Source: Liolophura sinensis
Lineage: Eukaryota > Mollusca > Polyplacophora > Chitonida > Chitonidae
Direction: 5' to 3'
Length of the DNA stretch: 64,000 nucleotides
NCBI RefSeq assembly: GCF_032854445.1
Contig: NC_088301.1
Coordinates: forward strand, 10,226,281-10,290,280
The notes beneath the pieces are model-generated. The model saw only the letters and a list, made by a program, of their open reading frames with translations, was not told the origin of the DNA and searched no databases. Below are positions 30,614 through 62,989 of the stretch, piece after piece (the stretch's first letter is position 1; each line of letters starts with the position of its first letter). Both the position numbers and the translations under genes were made by a program.

Positions 30614-31492
30614 TCACACACTAGTCTGCTCAGTTCTGGTCTCTGTCTCCTCTACCCCTGCCCTGTGCCTCTCTAAGGCCTTTTGTTTGACCAGTTCCTC
30701 CTCGGTTACACGTGTCTTGGTTGGGAATGGTACTGTATGATCAGAAGAGGAGTCTGATGTACTAGTGCCTTGTCTAACACTGCTCAGGCGAGCGTAAGAG
30801 GTCATGCTATTAGACCGACTTGCTGGTCCTCCAAAATTATCCTTCCCAACTAAATCTTTCCCTTCTTCTGCTGCTCTGTGCTTCGTTAACAATTCAGTTG
30901 TGGACCCAGACATCTCTTTGCCTTGCAACGAAGACGATGAGTCTTGGAATACATCAAAATCCTCAGTTTGAGCCATCTTCGGCTTCTTGTACTGGTCGCT
31001 TTCATCTGTCCAATCTGTATCATCATACTCCTCGTCTGTATCATATGAAGGCTCTTCTGTTTCACCCCTGTCCTGACTGTGCTCACCAGGTGTTTGCAGC
31101 TGCGTATCTCCCGCCGAGCAGGAGTCTGCAGGGCCAGGTAAGACATTGTCTTCTGACAGGTCAGACCCTGGCGAATCTCCAACTTCAGGGGAGACACGAT
31201 CAGGTAAGTTATTCCTTGTTAAGTCTTGGCTTGATACGTTTGGGTTGCTGGAAGCATCTGAGATCTGCTCTTGTAAGTCCCCCTGAGGTAACTGGTGAGG
31301 AAAGAGGAGTGGCACTGGGGATCCCGACTCTGTCGATCCTGGCGCTGTGGAGCCCGGACCTGAGGACCCTGGGCCTGGGGAGTCAGGACACTCTACTGAC
31401 AGTATGTTAAAGCCACCATTTGTTGAGTGATGAGCCACACCGTTTGGGATATTGCCATAACCCGTATGTATGGGGCTCTCACCATTACAAAT
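30614..31492 (-). CDS. Receptor exon 15: cytoplasmic tail and stop
   Basis: Encodes 292 residues (730-1021) after the acceptor TTCATTACCAG. It includes TGYGNI (Y741), a Gly/Ser/Pro run near 768-790, an acidic block with SYDTDEEYDD (about 873-895), Y897, TSYARL (Y962), and a Glu-rich end finishing TSV. Low complexity and mostly disordered. No YxxQ STAT3-type motif is present. An antisense open frame at 30820-31410 is a shadow. Confidence 0.85.
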   Translation of the reverse strand: MCNGESPIHTGYGNIPNGVAHHSTNGGFNILSVECPDSPGPGSSGPGSTAPGSTESGSPVPLLFPHQLPQGDLQEQISDASSNPNVSSQDLTRNNLPDRVSPEVGDSPGSDLSEDNVLPGPADSCSAGDTQLQTPGEHSQDRGETEEPSYDTDEEYDDTDWTDESDQYKKPKMAQTEDFDVFQDSSSSLQGKEMSGSTTELLTKHRAAEEGKDLVGKDNFGGPASRSNSMTSYARLSSVRQGTSTSDSSSDHTVPFPTKTRVTEEELVKQKALERHRAGVEETETRTEQTSV

Positions 31493-34400
31493 CTGGTAAT
31501 GAACGAGGAAAAAAATATGTAGGTTAAACTCATAAAAGATACATACATAAAATTTTGCTAAGTTTAAGTGACAGAAAAAGGAAATAAGTATATCTGACAT
31601 TACCACTTACTTTATTTATTTCTACTTTTTTGTAAGATTTTTGTTCTTGGGCAAAAACTGAAGGCAGTCAAATGCTTCTATTTTCTAAATAATTTTGGAA
31701 TAGTTTCTTACGTGAAAAGAATTTTTTCAAAGGTGAACATAATAGTACAGAAAACTCAATGTTGCAATACACTGACATATTCAACATTATCAATATATGG
31801 TCCATAGGGAAACATTAAAAATTAAAAAATTTAAATGCATTCTTTATTTGGAAAAAAATAGAAAGCCATACTTTTAGACATAGCTTCAACTGGACTTCCT
31901 TGATTTTCTGTTTTCTTAAATATTCAACTGACTGATGTCTTTAAATTTCACAATTTCACACAAAAAAAATAATTTCCCCTTTTAATCAAAAATAAAAGCT
32001 AAATAGCAGAAGAACAATGACAAGTTTGGAGAAAAAAAAATTTACTATGGGAAGAGACGTAAATATTTCGAAAATTTCAGAAAATAACTTTCATCACCTG
32101 GACACACACATGTAGATACATACATGTCCAATGCTGGTATAAATTAAATGTATAATATTGAACTATTTTACAATATGTGTTACGATGTATCAAGAATATA
32201 TCACTTCTACCACGGCGGCCAACATTATGGCGAGAGGAAATCGAGCAGAGACCGTGGGAAATCAACGAAACCAACGACAGAGTAATTATTAAGATCAAAG
32301 GAAAATTTTAAAAAGTGTGTAAATTAAACATTTATACACAGGTACATGTATATAGAATTTTGAACTATTTCATGATAATTATTAAGATCACAGGGAAATA
32401 TTAAACAGGCAGATATGTCTCAAACAAGAGAAGAAAATGTTGTTGACTGTATGATACTATGTTTCTAATTTCCTCAAGTGAGGAATATTGGCGTTGCTAT
32501 AACAAGTCTTAATAAGTTTCTTCACATCTTAGAATATTTCCAGCCAGGATAGACATAAATTTTTTTCATAATATAGTCCTTGTGGAAATCCTACATATAG
32601 GAATGAGGTTTTATTCCTATTAAACCAAAGTAAAGGTTCAATGGTTTAAGACTTATGGTTATTTTTGCTCTAAACAAGAAATGACTATGATTTTCTGTTA
32701 ATTACATACCTCGGTGGACACGGTGTGATAGCCATTTATTTCAGCATAATAAGAACTCTGTACAAATGAAACACAATACAATTAAAAATTTACCAAAAGT
32801 TGAAGAGCATCTTTTAACAAGAGCATCATGTCTTCATCTCTAGCGACCATTTCAGAAATCTAATTTGTCTAATATATACCTGCAAAATTAAGGGACCTGT
32901 ACCATGGAAAAAATTGACCTCCGAATTGAAAACCTGCACACCAATGTCACTTTTCAAGTCCCAGCTAAGGGAGTGCCTGCTTAATAATTGTCACTTCTAG
33001 AGAGATTAAACCTGCATCATTATTGTTTACTTAAATAAAATTCTGCCTCCATCTTGATATTTGATCTGTATCTAATATGTCCTCACTATATAACGTATAC
33101 GAATCTAATGAATCTGTGTGTGAGTGTATTATTCTTATTTATACAGTTATCTGACATATAATTGGAAACACTGTCCGTCCATACACCTTCTCTCCTCAAA
33201 TATGAGAGATATAGGTTAAAATAAACTCTTCCTGATTTCTACTCCAGCCAGGGATAATTTGATACACTGTTTACAATTACTTGATATTTGTTATTAATTT
33301 ACATACTAGTTGTGTTTCACACACCTCTGTACACTACCTCTGGTGAAATAAATGACATGAAAATGAAATATTCCATGTTTTTTTACCGCTCACCCAGGCA
33401 ATATAAACTCAGAACATTAATATCATCAAATACAAAACACGCAATCACTCTTTGAAGTTCATCTTTGTAACACCCGAAATTTTACTTGCACTCGAGCACT
33501 GTTTCAAGTCAAAAAGTTGAAAGTTTAAAAATACACATTTAAAATTAGAACTGAGCCAAAGTGTTTTGAGACTGTGCCAAAGTCTTCAATGTGCTAGCTC
33601 ATGCGTAAAAATAGCCATGTGTTTCTGGCAATTCCACAGGCCCTGGTTCTACCTGGTTCTGCCTGTTTCTACTTGGTTCTGCGTATGATCTACCAGTCTG
33701 GTGGTACCAATGGAAACAGCCAGCTGACTTTATTTTTACATTTCATACTTACCTCTAGATCTGGCAATGGCCGAAATGCTTCAGGATACGTAAAATCGTT
33801 CTTTTTGTTCTGACTTAACCAGAACAGTCTGCATAAGAAAAAAAAACACAGAACAACATATCAATATAGTGCTACATGAAAAAAATATGAAGAGTACGCC
33901 TAATGTCATCAGCGTTAACCAGTCTGAAATTTATTTATTTATACGATTGCTGGTTTTCAAGGCACTCGGGTATATTTCACTTATATAACAGCAGCCAGGG
34001 GCCTTCGTGGCTCAGTTGGTTAGCGCGCTAGCGCAGCGTATTGACCTAGGAACCTCTCACCAATTCAAGTCCAGCTCATGCTGGCTTCCACTCCAGCCGT
34101 AAGTGGGAAGGTCTGGCATCAACCTGCGGATAGTCGTGGGTTTTCTCCGGAGTTCTGCCCAGATTCCTCCCACTATAATGCTGGCCGCCGTTGTATGAGT
34201 GAAATATTCTTAAGTATGGCGTAAAATACCAATCAAATAAATCAAATAAATACAACAGCAGCCAGCGGATTGCCAGAGAAGAGGCCAGCATGAGCTGGAC
34301 GAACTAACAGCAACCCCATTCGTGAGAAGCTCCTGTGTCACTGCACTCAGCCAAGGAGGCCTCATCTGTAATACAGACTAATCAATCCACAGAAGTTTTA

Positions 34401-37400
34401 GTTATTTATTTATTTGATTGATGTTTTACGCTGTACTCAAGAATATTTCACTTATACAACAGCAGCCAGCCTTATGGTGGGAGGAAACCGGGCAAAACCT
34501 ACGACCATCCACAAGTTGCTGGAAGACCTTCCCAGACATGCGGAGGAGAATTTTTAATGAATCTGGTTCAGCAATATATGGGGAACATAATATTAACCAG
34601 TCAAATATCAATTCTGAAGCCAGTGGAATATTTTCAGATATCTATTATGACTTTTGCAAAGAGATAAACAAGTATTGTAAATTTTACGATACATGAAATA
34701 CAAGAATTTCAAAAAGATCACAACACAGAATCTGAGCTGAACATTACAGATAATCTGGAAGATAAAAGCCATTTCAAAAAGTATTTACTTGTATGTGTTA
34801 CTTTAACATAACTTAATTATTTATTTATTTGATTGGTGTTTTACGCCATACTCAAGAATATTTCACTTATAAGACGGCAGCCAGCATTATGGTGGGAGGA
34901 AAAGGGGCAGAGCCCCGGGAAAACCCACAACCATCCGCAGGTTGCTGGCAAACATAATTTACTACAATTCAGTATGACCTTCTTGTATTATAAATATAGT
35001 TGCTTACTTATACCTACATGTAGGCAGTGCATTTTATTCATGGCCACTTATAATACACAACTTTTCAGTAACTTTCAAAAATTACAAATTAAAACTTTTT
35101 CCCCATCTTTTTGGTCACAGTAACATGTAAGCTGAAATTGCCACAAAATGTCACAGTTGTTTTCCGTCACAATTTCTGTCACTCCGTCACAGCTAAATAT
35201 TGTGATCCCTGTAATAACAAATTCAGCTCTACTGACAAACTGTAGACCACATTTATTTCCAGAACATAAACTGTTAATTTTCATTGAAGATTTTGAAAAA
35301 AAATTGCCCATGTTAATTGTCCTGTCCTTTAATATGAGTGAGTTCGGTTAATAGAACAGCCAGTAAAGACAAAGACTTTGATCTGGCTTATTATGGTTAT
35401 TTATTTATTTATTTGATTGGTGTTTTATGCCGCAATCAAGAATATTTCGCTTATACGACGGCCCGCATTATGGTGGGAGGAAACGAGGAGCCCGATGGAA
35501 AACCATGACCACCCGCAGGTTGCTGGAACACATCCCCACGTAAGGCAAGCATGAGCTGTGAACTCAAAGCGACTGCATTGGTTAGAGGCTCCTGGGTCAT
35601 TGCGCTGCGTTAGCGTGCTAACCAACTTAGCATATACAAAATTACAAATTAGAAAGTATTATATGAGAGTGAGCTTTGACGTAAATAATGTGTAAACACA
35701 CATACCTGCAACAGATAATGATAATGCCGATCAAAACCGTTCCACCAATACAAAGGCCAACAATCAGTCCCAAGTTAGTATTATCTGGAGTGTCTGTGAA
35801 GAAGAGCAAGAACTGACTCAGATTAAGCTTCCCTGAAATTTATTTATTTCTTTCATTAGTGTTTCTGCACTGTACTCAAGAATATTTCATTTACACAACA
35901 ATGGCCAGCATTATGGTGTGAGAGAATCTGGCAGCACCTGGGGGAGGCCCATGACCATCTGCTGGTTGCTGGCAGATCATCTCAGTTAGTATGACCATAA
36001 TGAGTGGAAAAGCTGAAAGCTTTGCTAAAAAATCATATTTCCTAAAACAGAATCAACCCTATCCTCCTTCCTTCCTACTGATGACAATCAATGTATGTAT
36101 ATTCCTACTGATGACAATCAATGTGTGTCTATCCCTACTGATGACAATCAATGTATGTATATTCCTACTGATGACAATCAATGTATGTATATTCCTACTG
36201 ATGACAATCAATGTGTGTATATTCCTACTGATGACAATCAATGTATGTATATTCCTACTGATGACAATCAATGTATGTCTATCCCTACTGATGACAATCA
36301 ATGTGTGTATATCCCTACTGATGACAATCAATGTATGTATATTCCTACTGATGACAATCAATGTCTGTATATTCCTACTGATGACAATCAATGTGTGTAT
36401 ATTCCTACTGATGACAATCAATGTATGTATATTCCTACTGATGACAATCAATGTGTGTATATTCCTACTGATGACAATCAATGTGTGTATATTCCTACTG
36501 ATGACAATCAATGTGTGTATATTCCTACTGATGACAATCAATGTGTGTATATCCCTACTGATGACAATCAATGTGTGTATATCCCTACTGATGACAATCA
36601 ATGTATGTCTATCCCTACTGATGACAATCAATGTGTGTATATTCCTACTGATGACAATCAATGTATGTATATTCCTACTGATGACAATCAATGTATGTCT
36701 ATCCCTACTGATGACAATCAATGTATGTATATTCCTACTGATGACAATCAATGTGTGTATATTCCTACTGATGACAATCAATGTGTGTATATTCCTACTG
36801 ATGACAATCAATGTGTGTATATTCCTACTGATGACAATCAATGTGTGTATATCCCTACTGATGACAATCAATGTGTGTATATCCCTACTGATGACAATCA
36901 ATGTATGTCTATCCCTACTGATGACAATCAATGTATGTATATTCCTACTGATGACAATCAATGTATGTATATTCCTACTGATGACAATCAATGTATGTCT
37001 ATCCCTACTGATGACAATCAATGTATGTATATTCCTACTGATGACAATCAACGTATGTCTATCCCTACTGATGACAATCAATGTATGTATATTCCTACTG
37101 ATGACAATCAATGTATGTCTATCCCTACTGATGACAATCAATGTATGTCTATCCCTACTGATGACAATCAATGTATGTATATTCCTACTGATGACAATCA
37201 ATGTATGTATATTCCTACTGATGACAATCAATGTATGTATATTCCTACTGATGACAATCAATGTATGTCTATCCCTACTGATGACAATCAATGTATGTAT
37301 ATTCCTACTGATGACAATCAATGTATGTCTATCCCTACTGATGACAATCAATGTATGTATATTCCTACTGATGACAATCAATGTATGTATATTCCTACTG

Positions 37401-46400: not shown

Positions 46401-49035
46401 CAATTTTCATGACCTCAATTTGATGCCAGCATAAGCTTCGGGTCTGGTATACATTATCTTTTAATATCATGCCTACATCTTCACTTCCCTCACTTAACTT
46501 CCCCCTGAGGGTGTGCAAACAGGATAAATTTCATAACTTCAATGACAGAAGACTTTTTTTCATTCGCCCGATTATCAAAGGGCAATTCTGATGAGGAAGT
46601 AACATTCTGTAGTGAACATAATCGAAAGTTTTTGTTTGGTCAACTCATCAAGCATATATAGAGCTTTACATACTTTTGCTCTAGCTATTTTAATTTCATG
46701 TCAATGTATTTTAGCAGAATTAATCCAGAAAACTGGACGACCAGAAAAATGACGCCAAAGAGCTGTTAGCAAGTTCACTACACGTTTACCGCTTGTGCCT
46801 AAAATAACCACGCAATGAGCTTTGCTGTCTTACTTGTATTAATTATAAAGCCTAATATTTTTTATGTGTTCATTAATTGATTTAGAAAGCAAATACACAA
46901 ACAGAAAAATGAAATGTAGAAAGAAGACGACCATATATCCCTCTGTGTGCGTATATGTCCCCTTCACATTTTCAGTTTCATCGCCTTCAGTATCATAAGC
47001 GAATCATGCACGTGTCTGAGGAACATTTTCACTGCCTTTCATGGGGAAATCTAACTCCTATACAAACCTGACAATTCCTTATCTGCTAAAAGTGAACTAA
47101 TAATGCCTTCTCTTACATGTAAGCACATACAGCTGATGCTTCACACGGAACTTATAACCCGGATTCTTATAACGAAGACTAAGAACATATATGAAGAACC
47201 CATACACCAAATGTCATATTCTAGCAAAGGATTAGTTATGAGTCTGAATCTAGGGAATTTAGTCACTTTATTGGATAAAAGAAATGTTTTCACAAAGAAA
47301 TCTTTGGTACAACTTCAGGGTTCATGCCAGTCACCCTATCTGTAAAGCACTTTAGACATTCAAGAACTTAAACAAAAGTAGGTGTGACAATGATGGTGAT
47401 GGAGCCGACGTTCGTCTATAAACAGACAGTGAATCCACAGGCTGGGCTGGATAACTGACCTCAGTAGATGTCTCCTGGTGAACACATCTTTGGACTTTCT
47501 AGGAGCAAATCAACAACATGACACCCTTGTACCTTAAACATCATCGCCTCGTTGTTCAAAACTGTTGTACGACTTAACAGTAGTTCGAGATTATGACAAG
47601 TCTTCAATTTAATGCTTAGCATAAAAATAATTACGTAACGGTACACTAAATATAAAATAAATCTGCTGCTGTTATACTCTGACTTTTGGCCAACTGCACT
47701 GGCTGCAGAATTCGGTTAATATCGTAAATATAAAAAATGACTTAATACAAGTATTAATTAATACATTTTCAAACAAAAGGGCCCAGCACTTTCTGTATTA
47801 CAGGTAAAATAAAGAGGATAATAGTATATTTGACCAAAAATGCTGTGTATACATATATATATAAGGTATACAATGGAATATCTGCTAACGTCTTTTATTA
47901 TCAAACGATGCACAATATTACCCAACAAAGATGCACGTTATAAAATGAACGCCATATTATCAAATATTGTTTATAATATGGATTTACATGTAAGTCTTAC
48001 TAAACATAAGATACTTTGTATTTTACATATATTGATTTGACAACTGATAAACGCCACAAGAATTTTTCACTTATACGATGCCTTTCAGATTGTAAACACA
48101 TGTGCACACCTTATTTGGTGGAAGACGTTTGCTTCTTTAAAAAAAAAAAGGTTAAGACTGCCCAAACGGTCAGATGAGAATTTTGGTCGATTATTCTCCC
48201 CTCTGCTTCACTAGAGCGTTTGTCTAAAAACTGGTTTGTAAACCTGCGTCTTGTGTGTATTTCAAAGTGATTGAAAGACATGATCTGGTCCAGTGATGTT
48301 TTCTCTTATCACTAATACAGTGTAATTTCCATCAAAAACAGTGTATCCATGATCAACCAGTTCACTGTATGATATTTAATACCGCTGTGAGCATGTAAAA
48401 AAGATGATGTGTGTTAGGAACAATAATATAATATGCACAATACTAATAAGAAAAAAAATGAACACAGAACATTACCATGAAATCATGCATACTAAAAAAA
48501 GGGAAGAGTATGTAATCCACATGTTAAAAACAGAGGTATGTAAATGCTATGCATGTATGTCAAATACATTATGCAGTACAACAAATACACAGTATTCCTG
48601 AGATTAGTTCACACAATTTCTGTACCCCAAACATGCAGCTATTTTGGTATGTTCACCTCTCCATAATCATAACACACGTCGCCGTAACACTAGATTCAGA
48701 CTGGTATTCACATGTAAACGCGATCACAGATATGTCCCCCAAACTTTTCGAACAAGCTGTTGTTGCACACATCTGTACATACTATGAAAATATTCTTAAT
48801 GAAGTCGAAATTTCAAATCAGTTTAAAACTGTTATTTCTTAAGCAACAAATAAAAATATTGCATGACCATGGAAATTTGGGGTAAGATATTAAAAAACAA
48901 ATTTCAGCTACAATAAGGGAAAGGAACATACCAAATTTAATGATTGAAATTTTGACTTAAGTCTGTTAAAAATGTTAATGTTTCGTGGGTCCTGGGTCCT
49001 GAGGCTTGGTTATCAAGTAATAAATTCATGTAAAC

Positions 49036-49072
<37 letters not shown>

Positions 49073-55000: not shown

Positions 55001-58000
55001 ATTAATTATTAAATTGTAGATTATTTCCTATGACTTCCTTGGATTTCCCATGACTTCCTTGGATTTCCCATGACTTCCTTGGATTTCCCATGACTTTGGC
55101 ATCTCTTATGTTCTGCATAACACTACATGATTCAATCACTATATGATTCAAGTGAATAAACCTTTTCTTCAGTTTATATTTTCCTTGACAGTATTTTACT
55201 TGGAAGTGATTAAAATTTAAAAACAAAATGAAATTCAGAATTTCTGAATGTTTTGCAGTTTGAAAATGGTTATCTGTAACAGGGTGAACAGAAATATTAT
55301 ATTTACACATTAAATCGGCGTAATTACTCCAAATTTATCTTCAAATTTTCAGTTTTCAAATGTCATTTGATTTGACTCTACAAGAATTCCTAGATTCAAC
55401 ACTGACAAAATTGCTTCTCAGAGCATCTGGGATCTATAGCTTCCAGGGGCCTAGGTGGCCTTATAGCGGTGCATGCCCTTTCAGATAGCTTTTCCAGCAC
55501 GCCCTTTAAAATCCTGGCTAGGGGTCTGAAATAAGTGGCTGCAAGCTCAAGCCCACCAAAAGTGGTTTTGTGCACTAAGTTGTACATATGCAAAAATAAC
55601 ATTGGACGATGTCATACAAATGAAGCATTCTTGAGTACGGCCAAACAAATGGTATGGGTAAAATCCCCGCAGGACACCTTTGTGAGAATCTCCACATGAT
55701 GCCTTTGTGAGAGCCCCAACAGGACACTTCTGTGAGAATCTCCACAGGAAGCCTTTCTGAGAACCTCCACAAGTGGTCATTGTGAGAATCCCTACAGGTT
55801 GCTTTTTTGAGAATATCCACAGGTCGCCTTTGAGAAAATCTCCACAGGATGCCTTTGTGAGAATCCCAACAGGACATCTATGTGAGAATCTCCACAGGAT
55901 GCCTTTATGAGAATCTCCACAGGTTGCCTTTAAGAGAATCTCCACAGGACGCTTTTGTGAGAATACCAAAAGGACACCTTTGTGAGAATATCCACAGGAT
56001 GCCTTTGTGAGAATCTCCACAGGTCACCTTTGAGAGAATCTCCACAGGACGCCTCTGTGAGAATCCCAACAGGACACCTTTGTGAGAATCTCCACAGGAC
56101 GCCTCTGTGAGAATCCCAACAGGAAAACTCTGTGAGAATATCCACAGGATGCCTTTCTGAGAATCTCCACAGGATGCCTTTGTGAGAATCCCAACAGGAC
56201 ACCTTTGTGAGAATCTCCACAGGATGCCTCTGTGAGAATCCCAACAGGAAACCTCTGTGAGAATATCCACAGGATGCCTTTCTGAGAATCTCCACAGGTC
56301 ACCTTTGAGAGACTCTCCACAGGAAGCCTTTGTGAGAATCCCAACATCCAGATATTAATTTAAGGATTCATAAGTTTCCATATACATCCAATCAACCATG
56401 ACAAACAATTAATAAAGAATTCACGAGTTTTCTTATTAAAGGAGGAGAAAACATAAAAATGATGCTAACTTCAGAAGAAACAGAGTAAAAAGTTATTGCA
56501 AAAATGATGTAAATACAAAGATAAGGACGTCTAAAATTAACATTTATGTGGTGGGTATTTCGGTCCACCTCTTGGTGCGTACTGTTGTCAAATAATAATG
56601 CTTCAAACCAGGATGTGGTGCATGCCTAACATATTTATTTCAATCTAAATTTGTTGTTAATATCTAAACACATACATTAAATCTGAATTAACATGTAGAA
56701 ATAAAGTTAGACATTAAAAGTATAAAAATGAATAAAATTCTAGTTAAACATATTTGTCATGTGAAAAGACTAAATTCAAGCTCAAACTTGTCAAATAAAT
56801 TGATTAGACATATGTCTCATCCTCATTTAGGACACTAACATGGAAAAAAAACATATACCAAGGGTTGGTTCCATATACCCACCATACAAGTTTTATTTTC
56901 AGATGTCCTCAAAGAAAAATAAAAAAAAATGGAAGGCCATATTTAGAAATACCTTTTCACTTTGACTTTTTATTCCATTTGACATTTAAGTTTTCTTCAT
57001 TTTCAATTTAATCAACCACAAAAGGCTACCATCCCTCATTGTTACTACCATCCATAACTGTAAAAATGCACCCTCAGTGTAACTGCCATCTCTCAATGCA
57101 TCAACCTTTCATCATTGTAACTACCATCCTTCACCCTAACTACCATCCTTCATTGTTACAGCCAACCCTCATTGTAACAACCAAAAATAATTGTGACTAC
57201 CACCCCTCATTTTATCTACCAACCCTCATTGTAACTACCATCCTTCATTTTAACTACCACCTCTCAATGTAACTACCACCTCTCATTGTAACTACAATCC
57301 ATCATTGTAACTATCATCCCTCATTGTAATTACCACCCCTCATTGTAACTACCACCTCTCAATGTAACTACCACTCCTCATTGTAACTACCATCCCTCAC
57401 TGTTACAACCAACCCTCACTGATTTTGGACTGGCCATGCATAATGATTGTAAATAAACAAGTTCAGAAAAACAACTTACCATCCTCTGTTGTGATGAAAT
57501 CTTTTAGCTCAGGTTTGCTCCATATGTCACTCTTGTCAAACTTTGCAGAGATATTGGCCTGGTAAGGGGTATTGGTTACCAACCCACGTATCATCAGGGA
57601 GGTTTCATTTGTCATAGATTCCTGTGGATAGAAATGTTCATTCTCTACTCCAAGTACTAATTAATGTTAACTTAGTGGGGGGAAAAAGGGTGCTTTTATC
57701 TACCTTACCACCGAGGCTAGGGAGAGCTCCACATCACACAGACAACAGAAGTCTTACTGCCTCTGCCACAGAAAGCTCTACATCACATAGACAACAGTCT
57801 TACTGCCTCTGACACAGAAAGTTCTTCCTTAAACAGACAACAGAAGTCTTACTGCCTCTGACACAGAAAGTTCTTCCTCAAACAGACAACAGAAGTTTTA
57901 CTGCCTCTGCCACAGAAAGTTCTACCTCACACAGACAACAGAAGCCTTACTGCCCCTGCCACAGAAAGTTCTACCTCACAAAGACAACAGAAGCCTTACT

Positions 58001-61000
58001 GCCCCTGCCACAGAAAGTTCTACCTCACACAGACAACAGAAGCCTTACTGCCCCTGCCACAGAAAGTTCTACCGCACACAGACAACAGAAGGCTTCCTGC
58101 CCCTGCCACAGAAAGTTCTACCTCACACTGGCAACGAAACTCTTACTGACTCTGACACAGAAAGTTCTACCTCACACAAACAACAGAAGTCTTATTGCTC
58201 TTGCCAGAGAAAGTTCTACTGCACACAGGCAACAGAAGGCTTCCGGCCCCTGCCAGAGAAAGTTCTACCTCACACAAACAACAGAAGTCTTATTGCTCTT
58301 GCCACAGAAAGCTCTACATCACACAGACAACAGAAGTCTTACTGCCTCTGCCAGGGAAAGCTCTTCTTCACACAGACAACAGAAGTCTCATTGTCTCTGC
58401 CAGGGAAAGCTCTTCTTCACACAGACAACAGAAGTCTTACTGCACCTGCCACAGAAAGTTCTACCTCACAAAGACAACAGAAGTCTTACTGCCTCTGCCA
58501 GGGAAAGCTCTTCTTCACACAGACAACAGAAGTCTTACTGCACCTGCCACAGAAAGTTCTACCTCACAAAGACAACAGAAGTCTTACTGCCTCTGCCAGG
58601 GAAAGCTCTTCTTCACACAGACAAAAGAAGTCTTACAGCCTCTGCCAGGGAAAGTTCTACCTCACACAGACAACAGTAGTCTTATTGTCCCTGCCTGGGA
58701 AAGTATCTTCTTCACACAGACAAAAGAAGTCTTACAGTCCCTGCCGGGGAAAGCTCTTCTTCACACAGACAACAGAAGTCTTAAAGCCTCTGCTAGGGAA
58801 AGTTCTACATCACACAGAAAACAGAAGTCTTATTGTCCCTGCCGGGGAAAGCTCTTCTTCACACAGACAACAGAAGTCCCACTGCCTCTGCCAGAGAAAG
58901 TTTTTCCTCAAACAGGTAAGAGAAGGGTTACAGCCTCTGTCTGGGAGAGCTGTATGTCCCACATGCAACAGAAGTCTCACTGCCTCTGCCAGTGAAAGGT
59001 CTTCCTTAAAGAAGTCTCATTGTCTGTGCGGGGAAGAGGTCTACCTCATGATGGGTAATCTCCTTACCTTCCAGGGTTCACTCCCAACACGTCGATAAGA
59101 CACTCTGTACCGCATATTTGACAGACCAGGCCACATACTCCATCTTACTTCAACCTGGCGGCTGGACTCATTAAAACATACATCGTACACGTTAGGTGCT
59201 CGTGCTAAAATAAAGAAAGATCAAAATAAATTTATTGATATATTTCACTGTTGTTGAAAGATGTCTTTCATGGCATACATGTATGCTGAAGTTCAGTGTT
59301 TAAGGTTGGAGGAAACAGAATGCCTGGAGTAAATAACTGACCTTTTGCAAGTTACTCATAAGTCACATGTGACATTCACATATGCACTCCACATTGGTGG
59401 AAGACAAAAGGTCTTCAAACTGTCACAAATAGTGAGACACAGGAATATACAAATTCCCTGTCTCAGGCCGGGTTTGAACCTGCACCTTGTGTGTCTTTAT
59501 TCACTATAGACCTGGGGCCTCCTCCATCAAATTCATGAATGAAATCTTTATCTGAAGTAATTTGACATCTATTGTGACCACATCACTGAAACTTGCCGAT
59601 TGCCATGGAAATCAGACAATTTCACTAAAACAGCCTAAGCTTACACCTAGTTCCCCACAACATGAACCTGCAAAACCCACCAGAACATTGCAATATTGTC
59701 ACTGAATAATATCAAAAGGGGAGCCTCTCACTAATGCGGTCACTGTGAGGAAGCCAAGCTCTCTTAGCAACCTGCAGATGGTGGTAGATTTCCCAAGGGT
59801 TCTACCTAAATTCCTCCCCCCATAATGCTGACCGCTGCCATACAAGTGAAATATTCTGTTTTCAGATTTCTGTTTCTTTAATTTTGAACTGTCATCTGCG
59901 ATTAGTACTTTTTACTCCACTGTTATGTGCCTGTGAAAAGTTGTTCACCACCCAAAATTGAGCATTATGCAGGAGGTAACTGCCGCGAGAGAAGCGTTTT
60001 ATTCTCAGTCATGCAATCTCAGTTGCTAGAGCAGAGAAGAGTACATAAAAGTTGGGTGTTTGCCCTTGATCTAGCGTTTCTTGCTGGTCTGATGAAAATC
60101 ATATCTATATGCACTAATGATCAAAGTTGGTGTGTATGAACAAATGCATTTTGTACGCCCACAATGCTGGCCGCCGTCGTATAAATGAAATTTCACTAAG
60201 AACGGCGTCAAACATAAATCAAATAAATAAATAAATCATTTTGTACATACCAACATTTCCTAAAGAATACATGTATCACTGTGAACCGACTACGCGAAGC
60301 AAAGATTGTTAAAATGTGGCGAATTTACCTTATCATACTGCCATATTAATATCACTTCAGTTCAACAGAACCTAATATCTTCATCCACAGGACACCTACC
60401 TATTGCATTGGACGGAATTACGTTAACATTCGTGTGGGCGCTTCCAAAAAGTGTGGAGGACATTTTGACATGAATCGTGTGATTCATGTCTTCCTCGAAA
60501 CAAGACCTTCCTCCCGCAGTCAGCAGCGTACATTGCCCTGGGAACTTGCTTTCTGGACAATCACAGGGGAACTCTAGGGATGAGTCACAACTCCAGTTCT
60601 TCTTCTCAGTACAATGGTCATTGAAATCATCATAAAAGTACTGTGGTCTGAATAAACATCAAATACAATTAATACAGAGTTATTCTATATTTTCAATCTG
60701 CCCATATAAGTCATCATGCCCTGATGTCAGTCATTTGCTCAATATGTAGTCTTTCATTACCAAAATATTGAAACCCATTACAAACCCATTACAAACCCAT
60801 TACAAAAAGTCCCCTTAAGTCCAAAAGTAATATACACATTCTGCTAATTTGAATTTTACATCTTAAATGTTCATTGAAATTCTGTATCAGTTGCCCTTAA
60901 ATTCCAAAAATCTCTTCTGCTTGAGCACCAATGCTTTAGCTATGACATACATTCCGATGCCTTAAGGGTATCTGATGTCCGTCATATTAGATTTATCACT

Positions 61001-62989
61001 TAAACTTGGATAAATTTCTTTGTTAGTTAAACTTTTAGATACACTTAAACACGTATCACTCAAAAGCATAAAGGAGGGGATTTTTTTTGTTTATAAACTT
61101 GATTGGTGTCTTGACGCTGTACTCAAGAATATTTCTTGAGGAAACCGGGCAGAGCCCAGTGGAAACCCACGACAATCCACAGGTTAATGGAAGACCTTCC
61201 CACTTACGGCTGGAGAGGAAGCCAGCATGAGCTGGGCATGAACTCAACGGGACCGCATTGGTGGGAGGCTCCTCAGTCATTACAGGGAGGGAAAGAAAAG
61301 TTGAAAAAGATGGGCTACCGGTATAACCATTAACAGTTGGAGGTCATGAAGTAAAATTTGGCAGCTTATCCCGCAAAGTCCAAAAAACACTGTATTTCAC
61401 CTGAAGTTTTGCAGTTTTCAAGTGTCACAATTCCCTTGATTCTGACTGATTCATCAACCTTATTGGGCCACTTGAAATATTTTTTTCTGAAGGTTGATGA
61501 ATTTCTTATCAGACAAACTTTAAGAAACGGCATCAAAGCATCATTTTAAGGCCTTTATGTGTTTAAAAGTACATGTTTACGTATCAAATACAGCACTACT
61601 ATATTAAGAAACAACTCGTCATATCAAACCTTCTCGTATTTAACCTATATCGAATGTCCCAGGTCCAGTTCACATTTTTGTTCCGCTCTGTTGGAGCTGC
61701 GACGACAGTCAAGTTCTGAGCCATATCACTCAGGACATCGTAGAAGACCTTCACATCTGGAGGCTCAGCTGGGTCTATCCGGTCAGCCAAAAGCAAACAT
61801 TTGAAACTTTTAAACTATTTCAAAATTTATTTTTAGAGACAATTTTACATTACATGGATCATATAAACACTAATTAAAACTTCAATATGATCAGATGTAA
61901 TGCCACCTATACTGTAGCCTGTATTTTAAACATTTTTCTGACTATTTAAATATTTTTTTAATGTACACAAGACAAAAGACAAAATCCATTCCAATATCTC
62001 ATTTAAAATCAAATTAAATTTTGTATTTGCATGTACCTCCTGTTTTGATGAATGCAGGCGTATGGAGGTACATGTAACTGTCAAAAAGTTGAGAGAGTAA
62101 ATACACATTTATAATATCATGAACTGCACATGACATGTGAGTTATACAAAACTGCTTTATAGCGTCATAAGTCCGAAATCAGTTTTCGTTGACGTTCACA
62201 ATTTATACATGATATGCACATTACTGCCTTGAACGAGTAAATTTCCCGGATGTCGAATAGGGATTTTCTCACATATGAGGTATATGTGACAAAAGTTTCA
62301 TTAATTTTGCTCCATTCCTTCAAAAGGTATCATGTTTACAAGCACTACGTGTCAATCACCTTTAGCAGATCTGTTACCTAGAAAAACTGCGTCAAGGTTA
62401 CTGAGAATCAACAGGGTTCCTCCACAGGTTGTACACAATTTTCACAATTTTGAATTTAAGATTTGCACAGATAGAGCATTGACAAAAAAGTGTATGGGCA
62501 GGTGTAAGAGCAGACGGATGGACGTTGGACACCAGCTACAACGACAATACCCATATTCTTGGCCGAGGGGTAAAAAGGGCTGGATGATGACGGTGTTCAT
62601 GCATAACCAATACAAGTGTACTTACAGGCGATCTGCATTTCGATATCAGCTGCCAGACAACCTGACACATAACAGAAATATGAGCCCGCATAATCCTCAG
62701 TGACATTGGCAATACGCAGCTCTTTGGTCCTGGAATCTACAACACGGGTGAGGTGATCGGGCACATTGCCCTTGAAGCAGAAGTTGATATCAGCTGAAGT
62801 GGCGTTGGGGCATTTTTCGCCCAGTGTACAGTTCCATGAGAGTGTCTCACCGATGTACCAATGGAAAATCTTGGTTGCATTGGAAGAGCCTGAAACAGAA
62901 ACACTCCAGCTAACAGTAAAGACAAAAAATAATACAACCATACTTGTTTGGGGATAGGAGAGGAAACACACTTGAACAGCCACAGCCAT
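30614..62989 (-). CDS. gp130/Domeless-like class I cytokine receptor, complete 15-exon gene
   Basis: Exons joined from 62989 down to the TGA at 30616-30614 give 3066 bp, 1021 residues. All 14 junctions have GT-AG ends and matching phase. Domains: signal peptide in about the first 35 residues; Ig-like D1 with DYAGSYFC (exon 1); D2 about 122-247 (exons 2-3); D3 about 248-340 with degenerate SDIWS in place of WSXWS (exons 4-5); FN3-like D4 341-447, D5 448-549 and D6 550-658 (exons 6-11); membrane helix about 666-687; box1-like FRPLPDLE at 706-713; a tail of about 330 residues. Ig plus five FN3 is the order of vertebrate gp130; insect Domeless is the arthropod relative. Family members bind helical cytokines and signal through associated JAK kinases to STAT. 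Many N-X-S/T sites fit a glycosylated ectodomain. Introns are rich in minisatellites and SINEs. Membership of the gp130 group is confident; ligand and signalling are inferred. Confidence 0.85.
31493..32709. other. Receptor intron 14, with a SINE fragment
   Basis: AT-rich. A short minus-strand fragment of the common SINE lies at about 32186-32265 (ACGGCGGCCAACATTATGG). Nothing else recognised. Confidence 0.7.
32710..32757 (-). CDS. Receptor exon 14: juxtamembrane tyrosine cluster
   Basis: A 48-bp phase 0-0 exon encodes SSYYAEINGYHTVSTE (714-729). SYYAEI fits an ITIM-like pattern. Skipping this exon would remove three tyrosines without shifting the frame. Confidence 0.75.
32758..33752. other. 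Receptor intron 13
   Basis: AT-rich. No repeat or other feature recognised. Confidence 0.6.
33753..33828 (-). CDS. Receptor exon 13: box1-like region
   Basis: A 76-bp exon follows the acceptor TTCTTATGCAG and ends at GTAAGT. It encodes residues from R688 to E713. FRPLPDLE, about 18 residues inside the membrane, resembles the proline box1 used for JAK docking. Confidence 0.8.
33930..34365 (-). mobile_element. SINE interrupted by a younger SINE
   Basis: Minus-strand common-family SINE in two parts: tail at 33930-33986, body at about 34254-34365 (CCAGCATGAGCTGG, then CAACCCCATTCGTGAG). The younger copy at 33999-34253 splits it. Confidence 0.8.
33987..34265 (+). mobile_element. Full-length tRNA-derived SINE with target-site duplication, nested
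   Basis: The best copy in the window, 33999-34253. The tRNA-like head has box A GTGGCTCAGTTGGTTAG and box B-like ATTCAAGTCC. The central domain runs to GGCCGCCGTTGTATGAG. The tail is AATCAAATAAATCAAATAAA. The direct repeat AACAGCAGCCAG at 33987-33998 and 34254-34265 is its target-site duplication. Confidence 0.9.
34401..34550 (-). mobile_element. SINE, common family, 5' truncated
   Basis: Reverse tail TTATTTATTTATTTGATTGA, then CAGCCTTATGGTGGGAGG and ACCATCCACAAGTTGC. Lies in receptor intron 12, in the sense orientation of the gene. Confidence 0.8.
34817..34952 (-). mobile_element. SINE, common family, 5' truncated
   Basis: Reverse tail and central domain: TTGATTGGTGTTTTACGCCA, then CCAGCATTATGGTGGGAGG and CATCCGCAGGTTGCTGG. 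Lies in receptor intron 12. Confidence 0.85.
35397..35632 (-). mobile_element. Near full-length SINE downstream of the membrane-helix exon
   Basis: Tail at the left (TTTATTTATTTATTTGATTG), tRNA-like head at the right (minus strand TTGGTTAGCACGCTAACGCA). It lies about 75 bp from exon 12, in sense orientation. Confidence 0.85.
35706..35793 (-). CDS. Receptor exon 12: transmembrane helix
   Basis: An 88-bp exon between acceptor CTTCTTCACAG and donor GTATGTG encodes HTPDNTNL then the helix (about 666-687, GLIVGLCIGGTVLIGIIIIC). It enters in phase 1 and leaves in phase 2. Skipping joins exon 11 to exon 13 in a frame that reads H-C-S-G-stop. It lies between two sense-oriented SINEs. Confidence 0.85.
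35838..35978 (-). mobile_element. SINE upstream of the membrane-helix exon
   Basis: Reverse tail TTTATTTATTTCTTTCATTAG, central domain GGCCAGCATTATGGTGTGAG, end at GGTTGCTGGCAG. It is in sense orientation in intron 11. Its tail supplies AATAAA on the transcribed strand about 45 bp before exon 12. Confidence 0.8.
36072..37712. repeat. 30-bp minisatellite, about 55 copies, with 300-bp higher-order period
   Basis: Almost perfect units of ATTCCTACTGATGACAATCA plus ATGTATGTAT fill most of receptor intron 11. Variants (GTGTAT, TATGTCT with ATCCC) recur in order: ten-unit blocks at 36481-36780 and 36781-37080 are nearly identical, and a ten-unit period can be followed further. Since 30 is a multiple of three, open frames of 550-600 codons cross it on both strands. 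They are not genes. Confidence 0.95.
37713..38400. other. Rest of receptor intron 11
   Basis: No further repeat or exon recognised. Confidence 0.5.
38401..38559 (-). CDS. Receptor exon 11: second half of D6
   Basis: A 159-bp phase 1-1 exon between TTTTGCAG and GTAAGT. It encodes VAAMLQTENVCLDFP, then SGQMYFVCVHGISDD and KWVFRRA, the C-terminal strands of an FN3 domain. Reading on into the intron would add RKCVTYM and stop. Confidence 0.8.
38767..38907 (-). mobile_element. Diverged SINE, common family
   Basis: Reverse tail ATTTATTTATTTGATTGGTG, then GAGGCCAGCGTTATTTTGGG and CCATCCGCAGTCTGC. Lies in receptor intron 10. Confidence 0.75.
38908..39664. other. Part of receptor intron 10
   Basis: Nothing recognised. 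Confidence 0.5.
39665..40003 (-). mobile_element. SINE, second family
   Basis: Shares CTTATGTCGTACTTAAGAAT and TTTTTCAGTCATATG with the copy at 23695. The diverged tRNA-like head is at the right (minus strand GGTTAGAGCGTCAGTC). Ends about 160 bp from the 94-bp array. Confidence 0.7.
40166..40751 (-). repeat. 94-bp tandem array of an exon 10 fragment with its splice donor
   Basis: The unit boundary CACTGTGC (or CACTGTGT) recurs at 40166, 40260, 40354, 40448, 40542 and 40636 (94 bp apart), then at 40760 inside exon 10 after a C-rich insertion. On the minus strand each unit carries a 57-bp copy of the exon 10 end, encoding VSYGTADTTAENSSAQCDS or variants. This is followed by a donor (GTGAGT intact in four units) and a ~37-bp piece ending ATTATACTCAG, which looks like a weak acceptor. 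This may be dead intronic repeat or a set of phase 1-1 mini-exons. Confidence 0.9.
40752..40919 (-). CDS. Receptor exon 10: first half of D6
   Basis: A 168-bp phase 1-1 exon between GTTACCACAG and GTAAGT. It encodes GPGEVTEFQIEPLK, KLKWSPPDC and SYTVSYGAADTT, typical FN3 A-C strands with the core Trp. Its last 57 bp are the source or first member of the 94-bp array. Confidence 0.85.
41633..41868. mobile_element. SINE-related element with inverted tails, second copy
   Basis: Starts TATTTATTTATGTATTTATT and ends CCTAATCAAATAAATAAAC, with GGCAAATTACTGAC inside, as in the element at 21808. Lies in receptor intron 9. Confidence 0.5.
41869..43740. other. Part of receptor intron 9
   Basis: No repeat family recognised. 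A minus-strand 115-codon open frame at 42375-42722 has no recognisable domain. Confidence 0.4.
43741..44260. repeat. Diverged ~225-bp tandem duplication
   Basis: ATTCCTCAAC begins at 43741 and at 43966. Both copies continue with ATGAAAG-GCAA, then ATTTGATT, then CTTCACA and CTTGCAAACAT. Considerable divergence points to an old duplication. Confidence 0.65.
44623..44688. repeat. 20-bp short tandem array
   Basis: Three copies of GGTGTACACAGGTATACA-type units. Confidence 0.85.
45397..45795. repeat. ~31-bp minisatellite, about 12 copies
   Basis: Imperfect units of GGTAAAGGTAAGTTATGTCT plus CACATGTGG lie in receptor intron 9. Many units contain GGTAAGT, a perfect donor core, but on the strand opposite to the gene. 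Confidence 0.8.
45796..50271. other. Part of receptor intron 9
   Basis: AT-rich. A faint SINE-like tail lies near 48035-48085 and a (TA)n run at about 49039-49068. Open frames near 48404-48842 and 49289-49738 show no domain. Confidence 0.4.
50272..50380 (+). mobile_element. SINE tail fragment, common family
   Basis: CTGGTTTCCTCCCACCATAA, then GGCCGCCCTCGTATAAGTG, then CACCAATCAAATAAA. Strongly 5' truncated, antisense to the receptor gene. Confidence 0.8.
50592..50757 (-). CDS. Receptor exon 9: second half of D5
   Basis: A 166-bp exon between ATGTTACAG and GTACTG. It encodes TGYDWLTVMGPVSS, HNVTVANLDQT, FRFGVSVEVGGVSSGIAWSS and CLYDRPS. AWSS near the end is a WS-type remnant common in cytokine-receptor FN3 domains. 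Confidence 0.85.
50885..51060 (-). mobile_element. Diverged SINE-like element
   Basis: Starts TTTTTTGATTGGTGTTTAAT, then AACAGCATCAGGCCCATGG. The later part is unlike the common family and shares words with the element near 59225. Lies in receptor intron 8. Confidence 0.5.
51996..52135 (-). CDS. Receptor exon 8: first half of D5
   Basis: A 140-bp exon between TTGTTTACAG and GTGCGT. It encodes APLKPIQVVAEKLNSTTVHV then RWTVQSDAMHNVTIHLCQQ, a clear FN3 start. The donor GTGCGT is weaker than others in the gene, but it is the only one that keeps phase 0 to exon 9. Confidence 0.8.
52910..53129 (-). CDS. Receptor exon 7: second part of D4
   Basis: A 220-bp exon between GCATTTCAG and GTCAGTA. It encodes PIPKESENGKLLSIDVNV, then VANQTIVLCGVRRDQDYEVE and LKGRTKMGLSKVPS, an FN3 E-G strand region. 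Confidence 0.8.
53130..53935. other. Receptor intron 6
   Basis: Contains a short (ATA)n run at about 53627-53646. Nothing else recognised. Confidence 0.5.
53936..54036 (-). CDS. Receptor exon 6: first part of D4
   Basis: A 101-bp exon between TTTGTCACCAG and GTCAGTA. It encodes VPSESPKLSVGSYMHDVS then GQTSLVLYTK. It lacks the usual core Trp, so D4 is the most diverged FN3 domain. Confidence 0.75.
54670..55012 (+). pseudogene. Degraded transposase-like fragment (hAT/KIAA1586-type zinc finger)
   Basis: Two overlapping frames read KPKKIKTFYKKRG and then SDWLIFNYEWSAEDK and YCALCQKHKICAPNG with NKTWT. A basic patch followed by DWL, C-x2-C and KTW resembles the N-terminal zinc finger of hAT-derived proteins. 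A frame change separates the two parts, and it ends in a stop at 55010-55012. Inserted in receptor intron 5, antisense. Confidence 0.4.
55030..55096. repeat. 20-bp tandem array, 3.3 copies
   Basis: Perfect units ATGACTTCCTTGGATTTCCC. Confidence 0.9.
55660..56346. repeat. ~25/50-bp minisatellite
   Basis: About 27 sub-units of the type TTTGTGAGAATCTCCACAGG and TTTGTGAGAATCCCAACAGG alternate in dimers. Fills part of receptor intron 5. Open frames over 100 codons on the minus strand are repeat artefacts. Confidence 0.9.
56347..57025. other. Part of receptor intron 5
   Basis: AT-rich. Nothing recognised. Confidence 0.5.
57026..57425. repeat. ~19-bp minisatellite (CATTGTAACTACCATCCCT)
   Basis: About 20 imperfect units end roughly 55 bp from the donor of exon 5. 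Confidence 0.85.
57480..57621 (-). CDS. Receptor exon 5: second half of D3 with WSXWS remnant
   Basis: A 142-bp exon between TATCCACAG and GTAAGT. It encodes ESMTNETSLMIRGLVTNTPY, then FDKSDIWSKPELKDF and ITTED. SDIWS sits where the WSXWS motif closes the cytokine-binding module. First Trp and Ser are replaced. Confidence 0.85.
57728..59050. repeat. ~49-bp minisatellite filling receptor intron 4
   Basis: About 27 units of CAGAAAGTTCTACCTCACAC plus AGACAACAGAAGTCTTACTG and CCTCTGCCA or variants. The array ends about 17 bp from the donor of exon 4 and covers over 90 percent of the 1446-bp intron. Plus-strand open frames of 235-266 codons are artefacts. Confidence 0.9.
59068..59204 (-). CDS. 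Receptor exon 4: first half of D3
   Basis: A 137-bp exon between TTTATTTTAG and GTAAGG. It encodes ARAPNVYDVCFNESS, RQVEVRWSMWPG and MRYRVSYRRVGSEPWK, a classical FN3 A-C' region with VRW and the YRVSYR strand. Confidence 0.85.
59225..59500. mobile_element. Diverged dispersed repeat
   Basis: Shares TTTTGCAAGTTACTC, AATATACAAATTCCCTGTCT and GGTTTGAACCTGCACC with sequence at 22130-22190 and with the element at 50885. Probably an older SINE subfamily. Lies in receptor intron 3. Confidence 0.45.
59718..59855 (+). mobile_element. SINE fragment, common family
   Basis: GAGCCTCTCACTAATGCGGT, then AGCAACCTGCAGATGGTGG, then GTGAAATATTCTG. Antisense in receptor intron 3. Confidence 0.75.
60158..60240 (+). 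mobile_element. SINE tail fragment, common family
   Basis: CAATGCTGGCCGCCGTCGTA, then AACGGCGTCAAAC and AATCAAATAAATAAATAAAT. Confidence 0.8.
60400..60647 (-). CDS. Receptor exon 3: cysteine-rich second part of D2
   Basis: A 248-bp exon between TGTTTATTCAG and GTAGGT. It encodes PQYFYDDFNDHC, NWSCDSSLEFPCDCPESKF, QCTLLTAGGRSCF and HTIHVKMSSTLFGSAHTNV. It has more cysteines than a standard cytokine-receptor D2 and lacks the C-x9-C-x-W pattern. Confidence 0.8.
61090..61285 (-). mobile_element. SINE, common family, nearly complete body
   Basis: Reverse tail AACTTGATTGGTGTC, then GAAACCGGGCAGAGCCCAG, CATCCACAGG and CCAGCATGAGCTGGGC. Sense orientation in receptor intron 2. Confidence 0.8.
61645..61774 (-). 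CDS. Receptor exon 2: first part of D2
   Basis: A 130-bp exon between GGATAG and GTTAAA. It encodes YPAEPPDVKVFYDVLSDM, NLTVVAAPTERNKN and VNWTWDIRYR. The proline-rich entry and NWTWD strand fit the N-terminal FN3 domain of a cytokine-binding module. The donor GTTAAA is weak, but it alone matches the phase of exon 3. Confidence 0.8.
61775..62625. other. Receptor intron 1
   Basis: No repeat recognised. A plus-strand 123-codon open frame overlapping 62332-62703 is antisense to intron and exon 1 and shows no domain. Confidence 0.5.
62626..62989 (-). CDS. Receptor exon 1: start, signal peptide, Ig-like D1
   Basis: A 364-bp exon from the ATG at 62989 to the donor GTAAGTA. MAVAVQVCFLSYPQ then SMVVLFFVFTVSWSVSVSG forms the signal peptide. 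The Ig-like domain runs from WYIGETLSWNCTLGEKC to ITIANV-type strands and DYAGSYFCYVSGC. An acceptor-like TTTCTGTTTCAG at the end of the signal peptide coding leaves open that part of this is an intron. A later in-frame ATG (M17) would also give a signal peptide. Confidence 0.75.

What the first reader, a model, noticed from the sequence alone, without database searches (positions are those of the whole stretch)
30614..62989. Complete gp130/Domeless-type cytokine receptor gene in a lophotrochozoan
Fifteen exons can be chained with GT-AG ends and consistent phases at all 14 junctions, giving 1021 residues with the order Ig, FN3 x5, membrane helix, box1-like motif, tail. That is the vertebrate gp130 order. 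Only scattered class I cytokine receptors are known outside vertebrates and arthropods, so an intact lophotrochozoan gene is informative about the origin of JAK/STAT cytokine signalling.
Basis: partly seen in the sequence, partly recalled or inferred. Interest (0 to 1): 0.85.

Follow-up and report, generated by a model that had tools for sequence, protein, structure and literature searches.

The report
Chiton gp130-type cytokine receptor gene
The window, from the chiton Liolophura japonica, holds an intact-looking gene for a cell-surface receptor of the gp130/Domeless cytokine-receptor type; it is real but is one of at least six such genes in this genome, and receptors of this type had already been reported from molluscs.

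Summary
In detail: a 15-exon minus-strand chain, 62989-30614, with GT-AG ends and consistent phases gives exactly 1021 residues. By descent it is a class I (gp130/LIFR-type) cytokine receptor. Five further genes in the genome share its exon phases wherever exons were resolved. A profile of four of those, without this gene, finds LIFR, gp130, OSMR and IL-12Rβ2 first among solved structures; a profile of three matches this protein at 3.5e-47, with none of 201 shuffled or reversed controls reported. The genome is Liolophura japonica by scaffold number and N50. Corrections: (1) this copy is divergent: the C-x9-C-x-W signature of the other five is lost; (2) its 5' end is doubtful: the signal peptide may be translated polypyrimidine tract before an Ig exon starting at 62889; (3) gp130/IL6R-type receptors were already reported from Mollusca in 2021 and 2026. 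A JAK-like FERM exon and STAT exons are present. Transcript, ligand and fold were not tested.

The parts
62626..62989 (-). exon 1: putative signal sequence and Ig domain (D1); may instead be an internal Ig exon 62889-62626
   Evidence: Open frame; Pfam ig 2.2e-05 on a peptide from this exon (its first ten letters were mistyped), 0.0011 and below cut-off on the whole protein. Ig exons of B, C, D start at phase-1 acceptors
61645..61774 (-). exon 2: first half of D2; lacks the C-x9-C-x-W of the other five genes
   Evidence: Phases 1>2 as in A-E; global alignment to D2a of A, B, D not reached by any of 1000 shuffles each; to C and E reached by 23 and 22 of 1000; profile score poor. Weak donor GTTAAA
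60400..60647 (-). exon 3: second half of D2, with a cysteine-rich insert; second C...C pair kept
   Evidence: alignment; phases 2>1
59068..59204 (-). exon 4: first half of D3 (FN3)
   Evidence: Pfam fn3 best stretch at residues 257-322, exons 4-5; phases 1>0
57480..57621 (-). exon 5: second half of D3, WSxWS-position motif KSDIWSKP
   Evidence: Aligned with GGYWSEP (A), GGFWSED (B), SGYWSDP (D), GGFKSDV (E), DKFFSDI (C), KGYWSDW (gp130); phases 0>1
53936..54036 (-). exon 6: first half of D4 (FN3)
   Evidence: phases 1>0
52910..53129 (-). exon 7: second half of D4
   Evidence: tblastn match in gene C (2.2e-05); phases 0>1
51996..52135 (-). exon 8: first half of D5 (FN3)
   Evidence: phases 1>0
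50592..50757 (-). exon 9: second half of D5
   Evidence: 37% and 39% identity in A and B, genome-wide E about 0.9, locally 0.003 and 1.3e-05; weak donor GTACTG; phases 0>1
40752..40919 (-). exon 10: first half of D6 (FN3)
   Evidence: phases 1>1
38401..38559 (-). exon 11: second half of D6
   Evidence: tblastn match in gene A (0.006); phases 1>1
35706..35793 (-). exon 12: transmembrane helix
   Evidence: GLIVGLCIGGTVLIGIIIICC; phases 1>2 as in A, C, D, E
33753..33828 (-). exon 13: box1-like proline motif (YPEAFRPLPDLE)
   Evidence: 76 nt, phases 2>0, same length and phases as the exon of gene C (SIIIPPPLPDPDQ); PLPD aligned
32710..32757 (-). exon 14: juxtamembrane tail with YAEI and YHTV
30614..31492 (-). 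exon 15: rest of cytoplasmic tail and stop
   Evidence: Open frame of 292 codons plus stop
40166..40642 (.). intron 10: tandem array of the exon-10 end and its splice donor
   Evidence: 94-bp period, 5.1 copies, 92% matches; 6 blastn pieces 86-93% identical to the exon 10 end and following intron

Best explanation
A protein-coding gene for a single-pass class I (gp130/LIFR/Domeless-type) cytokine receptor, one of at least six paralogues in the chiton Liolophura japonica. Inferred working: the Ig and first two FN3 domains contact a four-helix-type or other secreted ligand or a partner chain; three membrane-proximal FN3 domains hold the chains in signalling geometry; the box1-like motif after the membrane helix docks a JAK, which phosphorylates tail tyrosines (YAEI, YHTV, YGNI and YARL are the likelier of the 8 listed) to recruit STAT or regulators. 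Because this copy alone of the six has lost the first D2 cysteine pair and the C-x-W tryptophan, I expect altered or no direct high-affinity cytokine binding by D2, so a co-receptor or specialised chain is the likeliest role. Shown: gene structure, homology, presence of JAK-like and STAT sequence. Inferred: ligand, JAK docking, signalling, role.
For: 1021-residue model reproduced. Exon phases shared with paralogues A, B, C and with the resolved exons of D and E. A-C profile finds this protein at 3.5e-47; none of 201 shuffled or reversed controls was reported. BLASTP to A 2.5e-29, C 9.2e-26, B 2.2e-22. Profile of A, B, C, E without this gene: LIFR 7.2e-36, gp130 2.7e-34, OSMR 2.7e-26, IL-12Rβ2 1.2e-20, then RPTPδ 2.2e-20. 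With this gene in the profile: gp130 1.6e-34, aligned from D2 to the membrane helix. Gene A alone: best gp130 5e-19. D2-D3 of D passes Pfam cut-offs for EpoR_lig-bind and LIFR_D4, that of A for IL6Ra-bind. This protein alone: best solved-structure hit CRLF1, 2.4e-4. JAK-like FERM exon and STAT exons in the genome.
Against: The protein alone is weak: CRLF1 2.4e-4 is followed by the adhesion proteins L1 at 1.7e-3 and RPTPδ at 0.083, and no class I-specific Pfam family passes its cut-off; nor does any for gene E. The relaxed CHD cysteine pattern is absent. No YxxQ STAT3-type site in the tail. Exon 2 scores only 1.9 bits against a D2a profile of the paralogues and at least five of 999 shuffles score higher. 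The A-C profile alignment to this protein starts only at residue 194, in exon 3. No RNA evidence. Two other JAK-type models found nothing.
Confidence: 0.85

Rival explanations
1. A cell-adhesion or guidance-type Ig/FN3 transmembrane protein (L1, contactin, RPTP, DSCAM kind) that is not a cytokine receptor.
For: FN3 is the only Pfam hit over its cut-off; L1 is the second PDB hit for the protein alone; the CHD signature is lost.
Against: Profiles with and without this gene rank gp130, LIFR and OSMR well above adhesion proteins and align D2 to D6 in order; exon phases and the separate 76-nt box1-like exon match paralogue C; the order is one Ig, then five FN3.
Confidence: 0.05
2. A decaying receptor copy: drift explains the lost cysteines and the weak splice sites of exons 2 and 9.
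For: GTTAAA and GTACTG donors; first cysteine pair and core W lost only in this copy; a long branch in the tree, though D and gp130 are about as long.
Against: No stop or frameshift in 15 exons, including an 879-nt last exon; TM, box1-like motif and tail kept.
Confidence: 0.12
3. Real receptor, but the first reader's exon 1 is wrong: the Ig exon is 62889-62626 (phase 1>1) and the signal peptide sits on an upstream exon; the hydrophobic stretch is a translated polypyrimidine tract. (Compatible with the best explanation.)
For: Ig exons of B, C and D (3 of 3 found) begin at phase-1 acceptors; in B and D the frame just upstream has stops. The tract before 62889 ends TTTCTGTTTCAG. A candidate signal exon lies 2.7 kb upstream.
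Against: MVVLFFVFTVSWSVSVSG is also a plausible signal sequence; in gene C the frame upstream of the Ig exon is open for the 30 codons shown; the upstream candidate has a modest donor (2.1) and could belong to another gene.
Confidence: 0.55

Closest known systems
Vertebrate gp130 (IL6ST), with LIFR and OSMR
   Same: Order Ig - D2 - D3 - three FN3 - TM - box1-like; profile alignment from D2 to the membrane helix
   Different: About 19% identity over D2-D6; first D2 cysteine pair and C-x-W missing; degenerate WSxWS (DIWSKP); no YxxQ in the tail
Molluscan IL6R/gp130-type receptors (PMC13203501; PMC8226699)
   Same: Same phylum; architecture as described there in the text
Arthropod Domeless
   Same: Ig-CHD-FN3-TM-box1 topology (PMC1963337 passages)
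   Different: Drosophila dome CHD lies on one exon (PMC1963337); here D2 and D3 take four exons. Sequence not compared
Ciona gp130-like receptor (PMC1963337)
   Same: Multi-exon CHD described there as resembling GP130
   Different: Not compared by sequence

Membership tests
Class I cytokine receptor (gp130/Domeless type) | Ig - CHD (two FN3) - three FN3 - TM order | tested here: met
   D2 by paralogue alignment, not by Pfam
Class I cytokine receptor (gp130/Domeless type) | D2 cysteine signature C-x9-10-C-x-W-x26-32-C-x10-15-C (pattern from PMC1963337) | tested here: not met
   even a relaxed pattern is absent here; A, B, C meet the relaxed, not the strict, form. The second C...C pair is kept
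Class I cytokine receptor (gp130/Domeless type) | WSxWS motif in D3 | tested here: inconclusive
   DIWSKP at the position; A, B, D have YWSEP, FWSED, YWSDP; C has FFSDI and E FKSDV
Class I cytokine receptor (gp130/Domeless type) | Sequence homology to the family above other FN3 proteins | tested here: met
   Through paralogues; alone only CRLF1 2.4e-4 against L1 1.7e-3
Class I cytokine receptor (gp130/Domeless type) | Box1 proline motif after TM | tested here: met
   RPLPD on its own 76-nt exon, aligned with PPLPD of gene C; JAK binding untested
Class I cytokine receptor (gp130/Domeless type) | Split exons with conserved phases across the FN3 domains | tested here: met
   Same phases in the resolved exons of A-E of this genome; vertebrate phases are recalled, not tested
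Class I cytokine receptor (gp130/Domeless type) | Gp130-like elbow fold of D2-D3 | not testable with these tools
Class I cytokine receptor (gp130/Domeless type) | Ligand-dependent JAK/STAT signalling | not testable with these tools
   Only presence of JAK-like and STAT sequence was shown

The most novel reading that the evidence does not exclude
Chitons hold an expanded cytokine-receptor family (at least six genes, three of them - A, D and this one - within about 170 kb of one chromosome), and this member has abandoned the class-defining D2 cysteine pair and tryptophan and gained a cysteine-rich D2 insert, so it has become a new kind of cytokine-receptor chain: a co-receptor, decoy or receptor for a non-helical ligand, in an animal without adaptive immunity.
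Probability: 0.3. Interest if true: 0.62.

Novelty: new member of a known kind. Interest (0 to 1): 0.42.

Why it matters
The receptor arm of JAK/STAT signalling is poorly known in invertebrates other than arthropods (so stated in PMC13203501), and the ligands of mollusc receptors are unknown. A chiton (Aculifera, called the sister taxon of all other molluscs in the abstract of PMC9366239, seen in the listing) with at least six gp130-type receptor genes, a JAK-like gene and a STAT gives a concrete set for testing whether receptor families expanded independently of adaptive immunity. The multi-exon CHD, unlike the single-exon one reported for Drosophila dome, suggests that the split-exon structure is ancestral; this needs sequence-level comparison with vertebrate genes.

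Tried and rejected
Unconstrained exon chaining gave 25, 19 or 11 exons by penalty and took in minisatellite sequence; replaced by homology-checked chaining. An alternative exon 2 with the C-x-W pattern was sought in introns 1-2: the regular-expression scan gave nothing, and the best-scoring of 21 open stretches was an 11-residue match in a 26-residue stretch without fitting splice sites. JAK by PF17887 and PF18377: nothing (the tool warns that this does not show absence), then PF18379 hit. IL6Ra-bind search of the genome: 2 hits, both below cut-off, one (C7:10122433) being gene A. Tree of six chiton receptors plus gp130: first run failed on the thread setting; the repeat gave the split {C,E,gp130} against {W,A,B,D} at 95 and 96% bootstrap, but with one outgroup it says nothing about the root, so no age claim is made. 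Exon 1 fold: pLDDT 37.6, not used. Signal-exon scan: the stringent version found none; the relaxed version found 5 candidates at phase 1 (4 printed, two of them the exon 1 frame itself), 2 at phase 0, 0 at phase 2.

Rows dropped or changed by hand before the phase counts: from A two exons of the automatic chain (10127731, 10130311), with TM added from a separate scan; from B two (5335758, 5341494), with the D5a end and the D5b and D6a starts re-set; from C three (16962227, 16961311, 16957466), with D2a, D2b, D3a and D6a added by hand and the two tail exons left out of the count. Phase was one criterion in those additions, and chaining enforces continuity, so the phase counts are not fully independent. 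D lacks a resolved D4a, its D4b start and D6b end are uncertain and its chain holds extra unlikely exons; E's D4b is over-extended.

Full report
Observation. With exon 2 set to 61774-61645 the spliced frame is 1021 residues with a single terminal stop, 14 of 14 GT-AG introns and consistent phases. The six exon 2 variants tried give 1015-1026 residues. Weak places are the exon 2 donor (GTTAAA) and the exon 9 donor (GTACTG). Pfam gives fn3 at 3e-13 (three stretches at a threshold of 10; two at 0.1 on a 619-residue part) and ig at 0.0011, below its cut-off, for the whole protein; a peptide from exon 1, with ten mistyped leading letters, gave ig at 2.2e-05.

Organism. The window lies in an assembly of 609,464,459 bases in 632 contigs in which contig C9 is 37,343,639 bases. 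The Liolophura japonica paper (PMC11068029, passages read) gives 632 scaffolds, 609,495,693 bases and N50 37,343,639. The N50 and scaffold number match exactly; the totals differ by about 31 kb. Eight hemocyanin units in a row agree with a mollusc. I take it to be that chiton.

Paralogues. A genome search with this protein found its own exons plus three weak hits (E 0.9-1.8) to its D4 and D5 exons elsewhere. Reading those places gave gene A (C7 10.122-10.149 Mb, plus strand), gene B (C9 5.340-5.361 Mb, plus) and gene C (C7 16.947-16.963 Mb, minus), exon by exon. Searches with A and C pointed to gene D (C7 10.186-10.209 Mb, plus) and gene E (C7 19.024-19.037 Mb, plus). The window gene, A and D lie within about 170 kb of contig C7. 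At least six class I-type receptor genes are therefore present; the count is a lower bound. Some models are partial: A lacks Ig, box1 and tail; B lacks TM, box1 and tail; D lacks a resolved D4a.

Homology test. A profile of A, B and C scores this protein at 3.5e-47 (search space set to 177,635), and none of 201 shuffled or reversed controls was reported; the aligned part runs from residue 194 (exon 3) to 685, so exon 2 is not covered by it. Pairwise BLASTP E-values are 2.5e-29 (A), 9.2e-26 (C) and 2.2e-22 (B). A profile of W, A, B and C finds gp130 first among solved structures, 1.6e-34, from D2 to the membrane helix, then LIFR 2.8e-26 and OSMR 4.4e-24; the first adhesion-type protein, RPTPδ, is at 4.3e-18. 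To avoid circularity a profile of A, B, C and E (four of the five paralogues; D left out because its D4 is unresolved) was run: LIFR 7.2e-36, gp130 2.7e-34, OSMR 2.7e-26, IL-12Rβ2 1.2e-20, RPTPδ 2.2e-20. Gene A alone finds gp130 at 5e-19, gene C alone gp130 at 1.6e-13. D2-D3 of D passes Pfam cut-offs for EpoR_lig-bind and LIFR_D4 and that of A for IL6Ra-bind, while gene E passes only fn3. The window protein alone finds CRLF1 at 2.4e-4, L1 at 1.7e-3, RPTPδ at 0.083 and IL-11 receptor alpha at 0.21: right direction, weak strength.

Exon structure. Exons 2-13 have phases 1>2, 2>1, 1>0, 0>1, 1>0, 0>1, 1>0, 0>1, 1>1, 1>1, 1>2, 2>0. The same appear in A (11 of 11 exons), B (10 of 10) and C (12 of 12) and in the resolved exons of D and E. 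Parts of A, B and C were corrected by hand with phase as one criterion, as told in Tried and rejected. Liongue and Ward 2007 (PMC1963337, passages read) describe a multi-exon CHD in Ciona gp130-like resembling GP130 and a single-exon CHD in Drosophila dome; the chiton genes are of the multi-exon kind.

What is odd about this copy. In the six-way alignment with gp130, the first D2 cysteine, the second cysteine and the C-x-W tryptophan are present in A, B, C, D, E and gp130 and missing only here (YDVLSDMAQNLTVVAAP against CVSESLENMTCTWDP). The relaxed pattern is met by A, B and C and not here; the strict published pattern is met by none of these four (D and E were not put through that test). No other exon with the pattern was found in introns 1-2. 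Exon 2 aligns globally to D2a of A, B and D with 0 of 1000 shuffles reaching the score each, but to C and E with 23 and 22 of 1000; against a D2a profile it scores 1.9 bits, less than at least five of 999 shuffles. The next exon adds a cysteine-rich insert. The WSxWS position reads KSDIWSKP. The tail after box1 has 8 tyrosines, YYAE, YAEI, YHTV, YGNI, YDTD, YDDT, YKKP and YARL, and no YxxQ; YHTV resembles a SHP2/SOCS3-type site (recalled). The parts of the C and D tails that were read have no YxxQ either.

Five-prime end. The Ig exons found in B, C and D start at phase-1 acceptors; just upstream the frame has stops in B and D and is open for the 30 codons shown in C, so at least in B and D the signal peptide must lie on a separate exon. 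In the window gene the same phase-1 acceptor exists at 62889 (score 3.8) behind TTTCTGTTTCAG. The hydrophobic stretch read as signal peptide may therefore be a translated polypyrimidine tract. A scan of the remaining 1 kb of window and 10 kb beyond found one good-looking signal exon 2.7 kb upstream with a modest donor, which may belong to another gene. I leave the start open.

Pathway. STAT_alpha matches lie at C1:88.914 Mb, 2 over the cut-off, one with a stop inside the matched stretch, as expected if it runs past an exon end. A FERM_F1 match over its cut-off at C8:9.926 Mb sits in a 294-residue open frame whose 7 of 7 solved-structure hits at E<=0.1 are TYK2, JAK2, JAK1 or a chain labelled tyrosine-protein kinase, the best at 2.2e-4. 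So both arms are represented, though only as exons; no kinase domain was tested.

Known before. PMC8226699 (2021, passages) states that IL6Rb (gp130) first appeared in molluscs. PMC13203501 (2026; outline with abstract, passages and two sections; [quoted passage not shown] it also says gp130 proper was found only from fish onward, so the two papers differ on the name. PMC3308963 (2012, passages) still called the bivalve JAK-activating receptor undiscovered. Among the titles listed by the literature searches (lists capped) I saw no paper on chiton cytokine receptors; the 6 chiton papers among the 8 listed hold neither 'cytokine receptor' nor 'gp130'. The library is limited to open papers.

Verdict. 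The gene is real and belongs by descent to the gp130/Domeless-type class I receptors, but fails one defining motif test itself. It is a new member of a known kind with an unusual D2; the rarity claim is out of date. The main value is the family of at least six genes in a chiton.

Noticed in passing
window 40166-40642; also C7:16961072-16961353, C9 near 5350586, C7 near 19033435-19033630: Short tandem or single duplicates of exon-intron junctions (exon end plus splice donor, or acceptor plus exon start) sit in introns of four of the six receptor genes (W, B, C, E); in this gene about 5 copies of the exon-10 end with its donor.
   Followed up: partly
window 4263-7292 (-): Single-exon open frame of 1010 residues matching XK-related (PF09815, 5.5e-18), possibly a phospholipid scramblase-type protein (recalled).
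   Followed up: partly
window 36072-37711: 30-bp minisatellite, 54.7 copies at 95%, open in three frames (up to 619 residues) inside intron 11; mechanical ORFs here are not genes.
   Followed up: no
window 57734-59006 and 55662-56340: 49-bp (26 copies) and 25-bp (27.2 copies) minisatellites in introns 4 and 5 of the receptor, giving long spurious ORFs.
   Followed up: no
introns of the window gene and of A, B, C: Dispersed repeat whose frames read FIYLFDWCFTPYSRIFHLYDGGQHYGG and GLPATCGWSWVSPG-like; copies recur in all four regions, probably a SINE-like element.
   Followed up: no
C7 10.12-10.15, 10.19-10.21, 16.95, 19.03 Mb; C9 5.34 Mb: Five further class I-type cytokine receptor genes in the same genome (A-E).
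   Followed up: yes
C7:10291880-10291994 (in L026): Isolated signal-peptide-like exon (MRPVFALALFLGVIFLG...) 2.7 kb upstream of the receptor, possibly its true first exon or another secreted peptide.
   Followed up: partly
C8:37880506-37891931: Eight consecutive matches to the molluscan hemocyanin domain PF14830.
   Followed up: no
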